The notes below the pieces were generated by a model that had not been told where the DNA came from, made no database searches, and saw only the letters and a list, made by a program, of their open reading frames with translations. A program made the translations under genes and the position numbers. From contig JAKAEZ010000001.1 of NCBI GenBank assembly GCA_021819825.1, positions 159,218 through 223,217 of the forward strand: DNA of 64,000 bases, in the 5' to 3' direction. This document shows, one piece after another, positions 34,356 through 64,000 of this stretch. Each line of letters opens with the position of its first letter. Positions within the stretch are counted from its first letter, which is position 1. This stretch comes from Planctomycetota bacterium. GTDB lineage: Bacteria; Planctomycetota; Phycisphaerae; WQYP01.

Positions 34356-34715
34356 GGTTTTGACCTCGTCTGTCTATTGTTTCGACCCTTCATCAGCGGT
34401 TCACTTTCGTTCGCCTTCGCGGACCTTATCCGACGCTTTATTGCCACACCTTTTCGCTCGACGTTCACCACGGCGGCTCTTAACCGTCGCAGCTCGAACT
34501 GATTTGCAGTCTGGTTCTGCCACCCGACTGCGAGAGACCTTCTCTCATCTTGAACACAACTGCTCCTTTCACACGGCCTGGCAATTTTTCCGGGCAGGCG
34601 GCGAAATCGACGGCATAAATGCCGGCGCTACGAGAATGTGTGGCCTTGGAAACTCGCACCGCAGCAGCTTGCCCGGATTTATTGCCACGCCCTTTTAGAA
34701 CGGCGCGCCGCAATC
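34356..34715 (-). other. Probable 5' RNA portion of the same group II intron remnant
   Basis: Directly upstream of the reverse transcriptase fragment on the minus strand lies about 360 bp that looks like group II intron RNA rather than a gene (for example GAACCGCTGATGAAGGGTCG near 34385-34405). The joint to the transcriptase fragment suggests a deletion removed the start of the reading frame. I recognise this by memory of intron sequences, not by folding. Confidence 0.5.
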
Positions 34716-58689: not shown

Positions 58690-58963
58690 CTAGTGCCCTG
58701 TTTCGGCCATAATTACGGGTTGACGGAGGGCCAAGGGGTTGTGGGCGCGAAGCGAGGAGGATTGCGTATGGATGCATACGTTGACGACGAGCGACAAAGC
58801 CCGCGGCCCCTTGGCCCCCGCCCGAAGGGTTGGCCTTAAACCGGCCATCTGCGGCGTCGCGTCGGCTCAAGGGGTTTACGAACCCGGTTCTCGCCGCCGA
58901 CTCCTTGCATCTGGCCGGTTTAAGGCCAATCAACCCGTAATTATGGCCGGAACAGGGCACTAG
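58690..58963 (+). mobile_element. 274-bp MITE-like element with strongly folded core, copy 1
   Basis: The ends are 33-bp inverted repeats (58690-58722 and 58931-58963) with one mismatch; both outermost words are CTAG, possibly the target duplication. Inside, a first hairpin pairs 58728-58746 with 58799-58817 (19 bp, three G-U), with a 52-base loop holding a small hairpin (CGTATG/CATACG). A second stem pairs 58830-58847 with 58912-58929, 18 bp perfect. I see no reading frame worth calling in it. A direct copy starts at 63846. Confidence 0.85.
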
Positions 58964-59087
58964 CCCCTTTTCATCTTCTGGGTTATTTTTTGCGTAAAAG
59001 GTTGTCAGGCAGAGGCAACGGGGGCTGGTAGCCGCCCGGGAATTGCCTGCCTACAATACCTGGACTTCGTGGAGGCTTGATCGCTTT

Positions 59088-60674
59088 ATGGGCAAACAGA
59101 AGCGTGTGGTCATTATTGGCGCTGGACCGGGTGGGCTGTCCTCGGCCATGCTATTGGCCAAAGCAGGTCTGGACGTAACGATACTCGAACGGCAGGAGCG
59201 TGTCGGCGGGCGGACCAGCGCTATTGAAAGTGACGGATTCCGTTTTGATGCGGGACCGACATTTTTTCTATACCCGGAAATCCTCAAGGATATTTTTGCA
59301 GCGGCAGGGCATGATTTATTCCACGAAGTTCCGATGCGCCGACTGGATCCGCAATATCGCCTGACCTTTGCGGGACAGGGTGAAATTGTCGCCACGGGTG
59401 ATGTCGCCAAGATGCAGGCGGCCATGGCTGAATTAGCCCCTCGGGATGCGGAAAATCTGCCTCGCTTTCTGAGCGAAAATCGCAGCAAACTTGCGGCGTT
59501 TGCCCCCTGTTTGCAATCCCCGTTTTCCGGTTGGCGCGACGTAGTAACCAAGCGCATGATGAAATTACTGCCCATGCTGCGACCTTGGAATTCGCTGGAT
59601 CGCGAGTTGCAGCGTTATTTTTCTGACCCTCGGATTCGTCTGGCCTTCAGCTTTCAGGCCAAATATCTGGGCATGTCGCCGTTCCGCTGCCCGGGGTTAT
59701 TTTCCATCTTATCATTTCTCGAATACGAGCACGGCGTGTTTCATCCGTTAGGCGGGTGTGCACGCGTGAGTGAACGCATGGCTGAACTTCTGCAATCCTC
59801 CGGCGTGCGAATTAGTCTGGGCGAACCGGTGGAAGAGCTGATATTCAGCGGAACCGCGGTCAAAGCCGTTCGCACCAATCGGGCCACTTATCCCGCCGAC
59901 GCGGTTGTTATCAATGCGGATTTTGGTGCCAGCATTCCGCGGCTTATACCGGACGGGCTGCGCCGTCGATGGACCAATAAGCGTATCGAAAAAGCCCGCT
60001 ACTCCTGTTCTACCTTTATGATGTATCTGGGCATTGAGGGGCATTACCCCAATTTACTGCATCATAATATTTTTCTTGCCGAGGATTATCGCAAAAATCT
60101 TCAGGATATTGAAAAAGATCATCGGCTGTCGGAAGACCCGTCTTTTTATATCCAGAACGCGTGTGTCACCGATCCCGCTTTAGCACCGGCGGGTTGCAGC
60201 ACTTTGTATGTATTGACGCCGGTATCGCATCAACATAGTCATATCGACTGGAAATCAGCCAGGATTCCCTTCCGACGGCGAATGTTGCAGCAATTAGAGC
60301 GTTTCGGACTAAAAGATATTGAGTCCCGTATCCGCTTTGAACGTGTGGTGACGCCGGAAGATTGGCAGAATCGTATGGCTATATACCGGGGAGCAACGTT
60401 TAATCTGGCACACGACTTTAGGCAGATGCTGCACTTTCGCCCGCATAATCGCTTTGAGGAAACCGGCGGAATTTATCTGGTTGGCGGCGGCACGCACCCC
60501 GGAAGCGGCCTGCCGGTGATATATGAATCAGCGCGCATCAGTTCGCGATTGCTCCTGGAAGATTTAGGATTAAAATCTCAATGGGACCAACTGGCCGCTG
60601 CGATGACCATGAAAGAGTGTAGAATGGACTTGACGAAAAGCGCGCAATTGAATGCTGTTTCGGCGGCCGTGTGA
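59088..60674 (+). CDS. Carotenoid desaturase/oxygenase, CrtN/CrtP/CrtI type (first)
   Basis: The 528-residue flavoprotein has VVIIGAGPGGLSSAMLLAKA at the N-terminus (FAD), GGRTSAIESDGFRFDAGPTF, and the family C-terminus VGGGTHPGSGLPVIYESA. It belongs with phytoene and diapophytoene desaturases; CrtN-like desaturation of a C30 precursor is plausible. The start at 59088 has GGAGG eleven bases upstream. The aldehyde dehydrogenase gene follows 15 bp later, so it is the first gene of the carotenoid unit. Confidence 0.9.
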   Translation: MGKQKRVVIIGAGPGGLSSAMLLAKAGLDVTILERQERVGGRTSAIESDGFRFDAGPTFFLYPEILKDIFAAAGHDLFHEVPMRRLDPQYRLTFAGQGEIVATGDVAKMQAAMAELAPRDAENLPRFLSENRSKLAAFAPCLQSPFSGWRDVVTKRMMKLLPMLRPWNSLDRELQRYFSDPRIRLAFSFQAKYLGMSPFRCPGLFSILSFLEYEHGVFHPLGGCARVSERMAELLQSSGVRISLGEPVEELIFSGTAVKAVRTNRATYPADAVVINADFGASIPRLIPDGLRRRWTNKRIEKARYSCSTFMMYLGIEGHYPNLLHHNIFLAEDYRKNLQDIEKDHRLSEDPSFYIQNACVTDPALAPAGCSTLYVLTPVSHQHSHIDWKSARIPFRRRMLQQLERFGLKDIESRIRFERVVTPEDWQNRMAIYRGATFNLAHDFRQMLHFRPHNRFEETGGIYLVGGGTHPGSGLPVIYESARISSRLLLEDLGLKSQWDQLAAAMTMKECRMDLTKSAQLNAVSAAV

Positions 60675-60689
60675 GGGCATTGGTGATTT

Positions 60690-62213
60690 ATGGAACCTGT
60701 TGACCAACCATTTTCCGCCCGTCGTAACGCCACGCAACCGCTGGAACTTAGTGTGGCCCAGGCACGCGCCTCACAGATTCAGTGGAGCCGGCAAAGCATT
60801 GAGCATCGCCTGTATGCCATCGCAAAATTTCGCCAGAGCATGGCGGCGTCTCCCGCCCGCTTTATTCAAGCGTTATCCCATTTGCCCGACCGCACGGAGG
60901 TGCAAAGCATTGCCGCGGAAATTATTCCCTTGGCCAATGCCGCACGGTTTTTACAGCGCCGTGCGGAAAGAATTTTGCGCCCGCGCGTCCGCTCTCCCCT
61001 GCTTTCCGGCATTCGCATTACGGTGGATCATCGTCCGCACGGCCTGGTGCTGATTGTCGGTCCATCCAACTACCCGTTATTTCTTCCTGGCGTGCAGGTG
61101 CTTCAGGCTCTGGTGGCCGGCAACGCCGTACTGTTAAAACCCGGGACTGGGGGTACCAGCGCGGCCGTGGCGCTGGTGAGCCTGTTACGGACCAGCGGCA
61201 TTGATCCAACGTTAATTCATCTTCTGCCGGAAGACACCGAAGTGGTACATCACGCCATTGATCTGGGCGTAGATCAGTTAATTCTCACCGGATCGATTCC
61301 CGCGGGCCGAGCGATCGTGACTTCGATGGCCCAAAAGCCGCCGCATCCGGCAATTATGGAACTTTCCGGATCGGACGCGGTGTTTATATTGTCCAGCGCG
61401 GATTTGTATCGGGCGGTTGCGTTGCTGCAATTCGGCATGGAATTTAATGGCAGCGCCACATGCATTGCGCCGCGCCGGGTAATTATTGTGCGTTCCATGC
61501 TGGAGAAATTTGAGCACCTGCTGTTGCGCCGATTCTCCGATTGTAAGCCGGCTCCGCTAAACGAAGCGGCAACGCAAAAACTCCTGCCGCTGGTGCGCGA
61601 TGCGTTGGCACGCGGCGCACGGCTGGTGGTGGGAAAAATATCCGGCGACAAACCACTGGGGCCGCTGATTCTTATGCATACCACTTCCGAGATGCCTATT
61701 ATGTCCGCGGATGTGATGGCACCGGTGCTCTGTGTGCAGGTGGTAGCGGATACGCTGGAGGCGCTTACCGCTTATAACGCCTGCCCCATGCGACTTAGCG
61801 CTTCGATTTTTGGGGATGCGGTACCGGCACGCGCCCTGGCGCGCCGCATTGATGCGGGATGTATCGTCATCAATGATCTTATTGCGCCCACCGCTCATCC
61901 GGAGGTTCCCTTTACCGCGCGGGGCGAAAGCGGGTACGGCACAACGCGCGGGGCTGAGGGATTATTGGCCATGACCTGGCCCAATGTGGTCGTGGAACGC
62001 ACGGGCCGCACGCTGCCCCACCTGCGCAAGCCGGAGCGGCATGATCAGCAGATATTGCTGTTGGTACTCCGCCTGCTGCATGGCGCGGATGCGGCGGTTC
62101 GAATTCGTTCTTTAGCGGCGCTGCTGCGCATATTCATGGGCTTTGCCGGCCCCCTCAAGGAAAAAGATGAGGGTTCAATTAAATCACGAGAAAACAAATA
62201 TGACTCGCTTTAA
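60690..62213 (+). CDS. Aldehyde dehydrogenase in the carotenoid cluster (CrtNc/AldH-like)
   Basis: The 507-residue enzyme has LIVGPSNYPLFLPGVQVLQA, LTGSIPAGRAI, MELSGSDAVFIL and catalytic Cys258 in FNGSATCIAP. It would oxidise the terminal aldehyde of a C30 carotenoid to the acid, the step done by AldH/CrtNc in staphyloxanthin-type pathways. The roughly 60-residue tail after the core is longer than usual. Its position between two desaturase/oxygenase genes with short gaps supports this role. Confidence 0.85.
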   Translation: MEPVDQPFSARRNATQPLELSVAQARASQIQWSRQSIEHRLYAIAKFRQSMAASPARFIQALSHLPDRTEVQSIAAEIIPLANAARFLQRRAERILRPRVRSPLLSGIRITVDHRPHGLVLIVGPSNYPLFLPGVQVLQALVAGNAVLLKPGTGGTSAAVALVSLLRTSGIDPTLIHLLPEDTEVVHHAIDLGVDQLILTGSIPAGRAIVTSMAQKPPHPAIMELSGSDAVFILSSADLYRAVALLQFGMEFNGSATCIAPRRVIIVRSMLEKFEHLLLRRFSDCKPAPLNEAATQKLLPLVRDALARGARLVVGKISGDKPLGPLILMHTTSEMPIMSADVMAPVLCVQVVADTLEALTAYNACPMRLSASIFGDAVPARALARRIDAGCIVINDLIAPTAHPEVPFTARGESGYGTTRGAEGLLAMTWPNVVVERTGRTLPHLRKPERHDQQILLLVLRLLHGADAAVRIRSLAALLRIFMGFAGPLKEKDEGSIKSRENKYDSL

Positions 62214-62286
62214 TTCATGCCGGAATAGCGGCGAAGCTTAAGTGTGTTACCAAGCAAGTTTGTTCATTGAGGCTCATAGACATACC

Positions 62287-63837
62287 ATGTTGATGGCAGA
62301 TACAACCAAGCATCCCATTGGAATTATTGGCGGTGGATTAGGCGGATTGGCGGCGGCTTGTACGCTGGCGGGTCGCGGCCACCGCGTGATGCTCTTTGAA
62401 ACAAATCCCTGGTTGGGCGGTAAAGCGGCGGTGCATACTGACGGGAAATTCCGCTTTGATATGGGGCCGACAATTCTGCTTATGCCTTTTGTCCTGCGCC
62501 GCATATTTTCTGAAGCGGGTGTAAAACTTGAAGACGCTTTGGACCTGGTTCGCCTGGATCCGCAGTGGCGGTGCTTTTTTGATGACGGGGGCGTTTTGGA
62601 CCTCGTGGATCATCCGCAACGTATGGCCGCCAATCTCGCCGCTTTTGCCCCTGGACAAGCGGTGGATCAGGAATATGCTGAAATGTTGCGGCAATCGAAA
62701 CTCATGCGCAACACGTCGGATAAATATTTTTTCTGGAAATCCATCGGTTCCATCCGCGACACCTTTGATTTCAAAGGAAGCCTGCAGATTTCCGTCCTGC
62801 GGGATTTGATGAACATGAAACTCGGTCGCACGCTTCATGCCACCGTGCGTTCTGTGATCCATGAGCCGCGCATCGCTCAGATGGTGGATCACTTCACGCA
62901 ATATGTAGGCTCAGCTCCGGCACTTTCACCGGCGGTACTCATGGGCATCGCGGATATGCAAATCAGTGAAGGAATCTGGTACCCACGCGGCGGCACCCGC
63001 GCGGTGCCGGAAGCACTGGAGAAGATATCCCGCACGCTGGGCGTTGATATTCACACCGACTGCCCCGTGGCACGGATTAAGACAGATGGAAAACAGGTGG
63101 TTGCGGTGGTAACCGCCGATGGTAAGGAATTTCCCGTATCCGCCGTTATCAGTAACTCGGATGTGGTTTTGACGCATAAAGAGCTGTTGCCTGAAGCGCC
63201 TGCCCAAAAATTTGAGAAGCGCCGCCGGTACGAGCCGGCCTGCTCAGGGGTGGTATTGTATCTGGGCTTAAACAAGCGGTATGATCATCTAGCGCATCAT
63301 GATTTTGTATTTTCCCGCGATCCGGAACAGGAATTCCAAGACATCTATCAGCGTGGCATCCCCGCCGCCGACCCCACGTGCTATCTTTGCGCGCCGGCCG
63401 GCAGCGATGCGTCAGTAGCTCCCGGCGGCGGCGAGGCTTTATATATTCTGGTTCATACGCCCTACCTGCGTCCGGGACAGGACTGGAAAAAGATTCTTCC
63501 GGAATATCGCCGCGTTATATTTGACAAGCTGGCACGCACGGCGGGATTAAAAGATCTGGAATCTCGAATTGTTTGCCAGCGCGCATTGACCCCGGAAGAT
63601 ATCCGTGATCGCTATCATGTGTGGAACGGTGCTATCTACGGCCTGGCCAGTCATGGCCGATTTAATGGGGCCTTCAAACCGGCTAATCGAAGCCGTGATG
63701 TGCAAGGTTTATATTTCGCCGGTGGCTCGGCTCATCCGGGTCCTGGCATGCCGATGGCCCTGATGTCCGGCTGGATCGCAGCGGACGCATTGGATACGGA
63801 TATGTCGGGAGCGACCGCGACTGTCCCGCAGACGTGA
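62287..63837 (+). CDS. Carotenoid desaturase/oxygenase, CrtN/CrtP type (second)
   Basis: The 516-residue protein has GIIGGGLGGLAAACTLAGRG (FAD), GGKAAVHTDGKFRFDMGPT and FAGGSAHPGPGMPMALMSGW at the C-terminus. It is similar to the first desaturase in its parts but clearly diverged. By analogy with CrtN-CrtP pairs it may be the oxygenase that turns the end methyl into an aldehyde. The ATG at 62287 has only a weak ribosome site; 62293 is an alternative. The repeat element begins 9 bp after its stop. Confidence 0.88.
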   Translation: MLMADTTKHPIGIIGGGLGGLAAACTLAGRGHRVMLFETNPWLGGKAAVHTDGKFRFDMGPTILLMPFVLRRIFSEAGVKLEDALDLVRLDPQWRCFFDDGGVLDLVDHPQRMAANLAAFAPGQAVDQEYAEMLRQSKLMRNTSDKYFFWKSIGSIRDTFDFKGSLQISVLRDLMNMKLGRTLHATVRSVIHEPRIAQMVDHFTQYVGSAPALSPAVLMGIADMQISEGIWYPRGGTRAVPEALEKISRTLGVDIHTDCPVARIKTDGKQVVAVVTADGKEFPVSAVISNSDVVLTHKELLPEAPAQKFEKRRRYEPACSGVVLYLGLNKRYDHLAHHDFVFSRDPEQEFQDIYQRGIPAADPTCYLCAPAGSDASVAPGGGEALYILVHTPYLRPGQDWKKILPEYRRVIFDKLARTAGLKDLESRIVCQRALTPEDIRDRYHVWNGAIYGLASHGRFNGAFKPANRSRDVQGLYFAGGSAHPGPGMPMALMSGWIAADALDTDMSGATATVPQT

Positions 63838-63845
63838 CAGTCGCA

Positions 63846-64000
63846 CTAGTGCTCTGTCACGCCTAAATATTAGGATTTACGGAGGGCCAGGGGGCTGTGG
63901 GCGCGAAGCGAGGAGGATTGTGTATGGGAACATACATTGACGACGAGCGACAAAGCCCACGGCCCCCTGGCCCCCGCCCCGCGGGGTTGCCCGCAAACGC
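63846..64000 (+). repeat. Second copy of the folded repeat element, cut by window edge
   Basis: It begins CTAGTGCTCTG like copy 1. The stem pairs 63884-63902 with 63955-63973, and the tip hairpin is TGTATG/CATACA. The 36 bases around the tip (63903-63920 and 63937-63954) are identical to those in copy 1, whereas the outer part has diverged and the right half is outside the window. Confidence 0.85.

What the first reader, a model, noticed from the sequence alone, without database searches (positions are those of the whole stretch)
58728..63973. Compensatory base changes prove a conserved RNA-like stem in both element copies
Between the two copies, A58734-T58811 became G63890-C63967, and C58765-G58780 became T63921-A63936. 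T58739.G58806 became C63895-G63962, and T58742.G58803 became T63898-A63959. All keep pairing, and the G-T pairs only make sense as G-U in RNA read from this strand. The 36 loop bases flanking the tip are identical. Selection on structure plus an invariant loop suggests a protein-binding or guide-like RNA.
Basis: seen in the sequence. Interest (0 to 1): 0.85.

Follow-up and report, generated by a model that had tools for sequence, protein, structure and literature searches.

The report
Mobile repeat with G·A-stapled twin hairpins
The two look-alike stretches are copies of a short dispersed DNA repeat predicted to fold into two hairpins, one of them a design found in relatives across the window's bacterial phylum and likely stapled by unusual G·A pairs; the changes between the copies keep the pairing, and the fold likely serves the repeat's own spread rather than a host RNA gene.

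Summary
The four base changes are real, but two copies prove little. The copies are ~275-bp MITE-like repeats with CTAG ends and 34-bp inverted repeats (TIRs); this genome has 14 core matches. TIR and CTAG match an IS630-type element, G001:C10.

Inside lie two hairpins and a mini-hairpin, a predicted four-way junction. A model of hairpin 1 built from this family alone matches 25 of 397 class and 14 of 392 phylum-sampled genomes. A core pattern also occurs in MAGs titled Acidobacteria, Alphaproteobacteria and Eisenbacteria.

The "invariant loop" is not invariant and likely no loop: GAGGAGGA faces GACGACGA, giving G·A/A·G steps split by G-C pairs that swap to C-G elsewhere. In other families hairpin 2 is an inverted relative of hairpin 1. 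G·U tolerance points, moderately, to opposite strands for the two hairpins, on internal branches rather than in single copies.

Best reading: a propagation module of a non-autonomous transposon, probably as single-stranded DNA. RNA remains possible; no Rfam match or sigma-70-like promoter was found at copy A, and no transcript data were available.

The parts
58690..58963 (+). element copy A (274 bp from CTAG to CTAG), between a radical-SAM gene (-) and an amine-oxidoreductase gene (+)
   Evidence: 14 core matches in G000
58690..58723 (+). left terminal inverted repeat, begins CTAGTGCCCTGT
   Evidence: inverted repeat I1; TIR pattern 29 matches in G000, reversed-pattern control 1
58724..58820 (+). 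hairpin 1 (H1); G·U tolerance on the + strand in its inner stem 58735-58746/58799-58810
58754..58761 (+). 5' side of the inferred G·A helix, GAGGAGGA
58783..58790 (+). 3' side of the inferred G·A helix, GACGACGA
58764..58781 (+). tip stem-loop of H1 (GCGTATG...CATACGT)
58821..58829 (+). mini-hairpin CCC-GAA-GGG at the predicted four-way junction
58830..58929 (-). hairpin 2 (H2); in other families an inverted relative of H1; here the H1 model matches it only at chance level (9.9 bits, E 0.41)
   Evidence: homology in other families
58930..58963 (-). right terminal inverted repeat
63846..64000 (+). element copy B, TIR plus complete H1, cut by the contig end; begins 8 bp after the stop codon of ORF 62242-63837

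Best explanation
The two copies belong to a family of dispersed repeats with terminal inverted repeats and no transposase gene (MITEs) whose inside is predicted to fold as a single strand into two hairpins, and this fold is likely needed for the element's own propagation, probably as single-stranded DNA, rather than working as a host RNA. Shown: dispersed copies with TIRs; CTAG ends in this family and equal 3-bp flanks in most copies of two other families; covariation in the stems and in the H1 core; in other families, hairpin 2 as an inverted relative of hairpin 1. Inferred: the G·A pairs themselves. Inferred: a transposase matching the TIRs (IS630-type here) moves the element in trans. Inferred: on whichever strand becomes single (replication, excision or cruciform), the hairpin next to the 5' TIR folds best, so the element behaves the same in either orientation. 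Inferred: this structure then helps excision, end pairing or survival of the intermediate, perhaps by binding a shared host factor, because the module stays while TIRs and target sites change. Untested: any protein, any transposition event, and DNA against RNA.
For: Repeat with TIRs: 14 core matches in G000; 29 TIR matches against 1 for the reversed pattern. IS630-type element with the same TIR and CTAG end: G001:C10, DDE_3 E 6.6e-20, 378-aa ORF. Target duplications read off: equal 3-bp flanks in 10 of 13 f5 copies (one of the ten, L391, is a 100-bp form without the core) and 14 of 18 G680 copies (L342 and L352 share flanks), TTA or TAA in all of these but one. Module outlives TIR: R1, built from f1 only, matches f5 copies at E 1.7e-9 to 9.2e-7 and further families. 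Core covariation: 3:6 is G-C 35, C-G 7, other 3; 6:3 is G-C 30, C-G 10, A-T 2, other 3, of 45 rows; these columns were unpaired in the model. Core plus tip stem: score 0.590 against 0.151 shuffled (0 of 500), at most 0.077 slid. Inverted H2: R1 on the opposite strand in L269 (43.6 bits, E 3.2e-8) and L247 (30.3, E 7.1e-5), and weaker in L258 (23.5, E 0.0037). Selection in spreading lineages: internal branches H1 inner stem GU 9: AC 1, H2 outer stem GU 1: AC 8; terminal branches 21:13 and 17:15; Fisher p 0.0065. No orientation bias to flanking genes in 24 copies: ++ 6, -- 6, convergent 7, divergent 5. Same plan in 10 of 15 folded elements.
Against: The strand signal is moderate. Over all H2 stems one search gives GU 14: AC 21, p 0.31. 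Without a tree, shared states are 8:3 (H1 inner) and 5:8 (H2 outer). The TIR stem, meant as control, also leans GU on internal branches (8:2). The f5 and G680 sets (11 and 13 distinct copies) have too few changes to tell. In the covariation count two of five measures (pairs with a both-sided change, further pair types) were reached by 97 and 93 of 500 shuffles. The reverse complement of H1's own stem scores 16.6-16.9 bits with R1, so weak H2 scores (L290, 18.7) are background; in this window H2 scores 9.9. No autonomous element carrying the hairpins was found: the core pattern is absent from the IS630-type locus, and 60 TIR loci of f5 and G680 (1.5 kb flanks, not every match) showed no transposase-sized element. 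Nothing separates DNA from RNA: H1 folds better on + in 12 of 12 (RNA parameters) and 9 of 12 (DNA), H2 on - in only 7 and 8 of 12. Some tips are GGAA or UACG, loops known to stabilise RNA (recalled).
Confidence: 0.5

Rival explanations
1. A cis-acting RNA element: read-through transcripts entering from either side form the inward-reading hairpin first, which binds a host protein and protects, insulates or processes the mRNA. The inverted layout would make this work in either insertion orientation.
For: G·U pairs kept on the inward-reading strand; RNA parameters give the larger strand difference; stable fold, z -16.9.
Against: Terminal branches show no clear bias (21:13 and 17:15), as if single copies were not under selection. 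5 of 24 copies lie between divergent genes. No promoter or terminator match at copy A; no Rfam family.
Confidence: 0.25
2. A trans-acting RNA made by some copies that helps a transposase, like a guide or scaffold RNA.
For: Strand-specific folding and module conservation across families.
Against: A trans-acting RNA would relax constraint on the other copies, whereas internal branches as a whole look constrained. No variable guide-like segment: 12 of the 16 invariant columns of A1 lie in the core. No promoter match at copy A.
Confidence: 0.1
3. No selection on the hairpins: palindromes are kept by template switching or hairpin repair, which copies one arm onto the other, and the TIRs change together because one transposase must bind both.
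For: TIR stem shows symmetric G·T and A·C decay (18 against 23 events), as expected for DNA, and has the most both-sided changes (34 WC-to-WC events).
Against: Arm copying cannot make purine-purine G·A pairs or swap GAG/GAC sides; the core swaps G-C to C-G at two places with the G·A pairs kept. The same hairpin plan recurs in 10 of 15 folded elements of several families. Decay is not symmetric in the inner H1 stem (21:3).
Confidence: 0.12

Closest known systems
Miniature inverted-repeat transposable elements of bacteria (review PMC10969869, passages read)
   Same: Short, no transposase ORF, TIRs, target duplications, many copies, stable predicted fold, TIR shared with an IS
   Different: Conserved internal module with an inferred G·A helix and two hairpins, kept across different TIRs and target sites; the passages seen mention stem-loop transcripts only in general
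REP/REPIN doublets and GTAG/CGTC-tagged REPs (PMC3733652, passages read; PMC3116915, listing only)
   Same: Two inverted imperfect hairpins forming one mobile-type unit
   Different: REPs there are 20-40 bp palindromes tagged GTAG or CGTC at one end; here ~100-nt hairpins inside TIRs with CTAG or TWA target sites
IS630 / Tc1-mariner-type elements (CTAG preference recalled)
   Same: TIR and CTAG end shared with the f1 family
   Different: The hairpin core was not found in the IS630-type locus seen; f5 and G680 families have 3-bp TWA duplications instead
STAXI motif, a candidate single-stranded-DNA structure (PMC2864571, passages read)
   Same: Conserved secondary structure discussed as possibly acting as single-stranded DNA
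   Different: Repeated pseudoknots near DNA-handling genes, not a TIR-bounded repeat

Membership tests
MITE | terminal inverted repeats | tested here: met
   35-nt arms, 97% complementary; other families
MITE | no transposase gene; short | tested here: met
   274 bp; ORFs of at least 200 aa lie outside
MITE | target-site duplication | tested here: met
   equal 3-bp flanks in 10 of 13 f5 and 14 of 18 G680 copies (read off); in f1 the ends are CTAG, a palindrome, which cannot show the length
MITE | several dispersed copies | tested here: met
   14 core matches in G000
MITE of IS630 (f1 family) | TIR shared with an IS630-type element | tested here: met
   G001:C10, DDE_3 E 6.6e-20, 378-aa ORF, right TIR exact over 15 bases; its left TIR differs at some bases
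MITE of IS630 (f1 family) | mobilised by that transposase | not testable with these tools
   needs a transposition assay
REPIN / tagged REP | GTAG or CGTC tag beside a 20-40 bp palindrome | tested here: not met
   ~100-nt hairpins inside TIRs, by sequence and fold
REPIN / tagged REP | RAYT transposase in the genome | not tested
   no search made
Any Rfam RNA family | match to a covariance model | tested here: not met
   no gathering-level match over the element; at E up to 2 only one chance match, 15.4 bits against a cut-off of 142 (copy A)
IS110 bridge RNA or other guide RNA | variable guide segment and cognate recombinase | tested here: inconclusive
   core conserved rather than variable; no search for an IS110 recombinase was made

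The most novel reading that the evidence does not exclude
A portable single-strand module, two inverted hairpins built on a repeating G·A/A·G/G-C helix around a four-way junction, drives the spread of miniature transposons, moves from one TIR set and target-site type to another, and so lets non-autonomous elements exploit unrelated transposases across bacterial phyla.
Probability: 0.33. Interest if true: 0.87.

Novelty: new variant of a known kind. Interest (0 to 1): 0.72.

Why it matters
MITEs are usually seen as passive leftovers with only their ends under selection (recalled). Here the inside holds a core that covaries across families and stays while ends and target sites change. If confirmed, non-autonomous DNA elements depend on a folded strand, giving a direct test of how they outspread full transposons, and a natural set of tandem G·A helices for structural work.

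Tried and rejected
A small ORF with a Shine-Dalgarno-like GGAGG before ATG inside H1 was considered and dropped: the ATG context is lost in other families (alignments, by eye). A kissing interaction between the H1 loop (GCGAGGAG) and the H2 loop (CTCCTTGC) was considered; if H2 is an inverted relative of H1 the complementarity follows, so it is no separate evidence.

An autonomous element with the hairpins was sought in G006:C74 (L087): the 1.4 kb between H1 and H2 holds an insertion-sequence-like element with other inverted ends (its transposase type was not searched). In L048 and L050 the hairpin sits beside what look by eye like broken transposase pieces of other types; read as chance neighbours. 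One search found no transposase-sized element with the f5 or G680 TIRs in the 60 loci it was given (loci were returned for 30 of 46 matches and 30 of 48; 1.5 kb flanks).

Raw cell counts of G·U against A·C were replaced by tree-based events, since shared ancestry inflates cells. The inner/outer division of the H1 stem was set before the event count but after those cell counts.

Literature: eight searches; the titles and abstract starts listed describe no such element, but several listings were capped (20 of 51, 15 of 22, 15 of 40, 12 of 66, 10 of 278) and the library holds open-licence papers only.

Rows dropped: one search gave 88 pattern matches, some of them chance by eye; 37 were chosen for A1 and 32 (without f5) for A2. 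One search took 49 copies spanning the model out of 97 places and dropped one identical copy. H2 alignment A3 took 38 of 44. A4 keeps one evident chance match (L213:2232-2282, 18.7 bits) and two aberrant cores (L215, L243). In one search L256, L266 and L259 fit the core pattern poorly.
Full report
What was claimed and checked. The four base changes, the offset of 5156 and the identical loop sides are all in the sequence. Hairpin 1 (H1, 58724-58820) differs at 9 of 97 positions between the copies; six make up the four pair changes and three lie in the tip loop. Two both-sided changes are suggestive, no more, so I collected further copies.

What the thing is. Copy A runs from CTAG at 58690 to CTAG at 58963, with 34-bp terminal inverted repeats. 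Copy B begins at 63846 and runs off the contig. The genome (G000, 2.49 Mb, 68% complete) has 14 core matches at E 1.7e-28 or better and 29 TIR-start matches, against 1 for the reversed pattern. The same TIR and CTAG end bound a 378-aa IS630-type transposase ORF in a same-genus genome (G001:C10); the core pattern was not found in that locus. So the element is a MITE-type repeat, likely moved by an IS630-type enzyme in this family. A same-genus genome, G004, has a contig (C520, 10230 bp) equal in length to a record titled Planctomycetota bacterium, so the window is very likely planctomycete.

Covariation. On 31 distinct H1 sequences of this family the score is 0.250 against 0.170 +/- 0.011 for shuffles (0 of 500 as high) and at most 0.155 for slid partners. 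A covariance model, R1, built only from this family matched a second family (f5, genomes G031 and G049, other TIRs) at E 1.7e-9 to 9.2e-7. It matched 25 of 397 class genomes and 14 of 392 phylum-sampled genomes, own genome included in both; 12 candidates per genome were scored, so these are lower bounds. A core pattern scan of named genomes gave 63 stretches: 41 titled Planctomycetota, Planctomycetaceae, Phycisphaera or Phycisphaerales; 16 titled Actinomycetes (CSMAG), some of whose contigs equal G031 or G049 contigs in length; and 6 titled Acidobacteria/Acidobacteriota (2), Rhodospirillales (2), Alphaproteobacteria (1) and Eisenbacteria (1). Of those six, L302 and L313 fold into the plan below and L320 resembles L302; L335 has one hairpin only; L290 is cut by its contig; L316 was not folded. 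These are metagenome-assembled genomes, so the phylum labels are unverified.

The loop is likely a helix. R1 matches from 40 chosen loci were aligned (A4, 45 rows). The two sides of the 'loop' face each other as G·A, A·G, G-C, G·A, A·G, G-C, G·A, A·G. At the two Watson-Crick positions the rows read G-C 35, C-G 7, other 3, and G-C 30, C-G 10, A-T 2, other 3. In L213, L214 and L219 the GAG and GAC sides are exchanged; in L220 a G·A/A·G step is replaced by two A-T pairs; in L257 an outer one by G-C and C-G. These columns were unpaired in the model, so the fit does not favour them. Core plus tip stem (the tip, 7 of the 11 pairs, was in the model) score 0.590 against 0.151 +/- 0.017 shuffled (0 of 500) and at most 0.077 slid; two of the five measures were reached by 97 and 93 of 500 shuffles. 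That the G·A pairs form is inferred from this pattern.

Two hairpins, inverted. In L269 and L247 R1 also matches the second hairpin on the opposite strand (43.6 and 30.3 bits; E 3.2e-8, 7.1e-5), more weakly in L258 (23.5 bits, E 0.0037). Background: the reverse complement of H1's own stem scores 16.6-16.9 bits and a chance match 18.7, so L290 (18.7) and L166 (18.5) add little. In G680 a loose core pattern fits both strands in 15 of 18 copies. In the window H2 gives 9.9 bits, E 0.41, so here the relation rests on the other families. Folding 15 elements as RNA gave the same plan in 10: outer stem reaching position 29-34, H1 of 96-106 nt, mini-hairpin of 7-11 nt, H2 of 97-107 nt; L251 has a longer middle hairpin, and four folded otherwise.

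Which strand. In 48 full copies a tree-based count in the 12 H1 pairs next to the core gives 21 Watson-Crick to G·U events against 3 to A·C; the outer H1 pairs give 9:11, the tip stem 3:2, the TIR 18:23, all H1 33:16 (p 0.021), all H2 14:21 (p 0.31). With 92 H1 and 73 H2 copies, internal branches give 9:1 (H1 inner) and 1:8 (H2 outer), terminal branches 21:13 and 17:15; Fisher p 0.0065 for internal against terminal. So H1 seems to tolerate wobble on the + strand and H2 on the - strand, in lineages that kept copying. Against this: the TIR also leans 8:2 on internal branches, and a tree-free count is weaker (8:3 and 5:8). I call this moderate evidence.

Target sites. Read off, equal 3-bp flanks occur in 10 of 13 f5 copies (one of the ten lacks the core) and 14 of 18 G680 copies (two of these share the same flanks), TTA or TAA in all but one. 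The f1 family has CTAG at both ends. So the module sits on elements with different target sites, which suggests different transposases; for f5 and G680 none was found in the loci inspected.

How it likely works. Constraint on internal but not clearly on terminal branches points to a role in propagation; constraint in cis points away from a shared trans-acting RNA; no bias in gene orientation (++ 6, -- 6, convergent 7, divergent 5 of the 24 of 49 full-length copies with enough flank; crude ORF calls) fits a strand-symmetric design. I therefore favour a single-stranded DNA structure used during transposition or replication, at 0.5, with a cis-acting RNA as the main rival. No promoter or terminator match was found at copy A (sigma-70 consensus only) and no Rfam family fits; transcript data were not available.

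Known or not. Searches of the open-licence library listed no title or abstract start describing this element; several listings were capped. Passages of PMC3733652, PMC2864571 and PMC10969869 were read; those passages do not describe it.

Noticed in passing
window 34429-34546, - strand: Group II intron domain match RF01999, 91.3 bits.
   Followed up: no
window 59043-63837: Between the two element copies lie two amine-oxidoreductase-type flavoproteins (phytoene-desaturase-like by eye) around an aldehyde dehydrogenase.
   Followed up: partly
L087 (G006:C74) 90-1400: An insertion-sequence-like element with ends TAGGCGCTAACTTA sits between H1 and H2 of one copy.
   Followed up: partly
G000:C61:41307-41352 (L012) and G000:C60:48095-48203: TIR palindromes of 46 and 109 bp without the hairpin module, the first beside a full copy.
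   Followed up: partly
window 64000 and relatives' contig ends: Contigs often break inside this element, e.g. several TIRs about 110 bp from contig starts in G001.
   Followed up: no
L342 and L352 (G680): Two copies far apart in a one-contig genome share the same 8-bp flanks on both sides, as if a longer stretch was duplicated.
   Followed up: no
record titles, e.g. L282, L279: Records titled Actinomycetes bacterium CSMAG equal in contig length genomes that group here in the window's class (G031, G049), so the titles look mislabelled.
   Followed up: no
L060, L067 (G000:C15, C39): Another repeat start, CTAGTGCTCTGTCYGAGTAAT, shares the first 12 bases of the TIR but continues differently.
   Followed up: no
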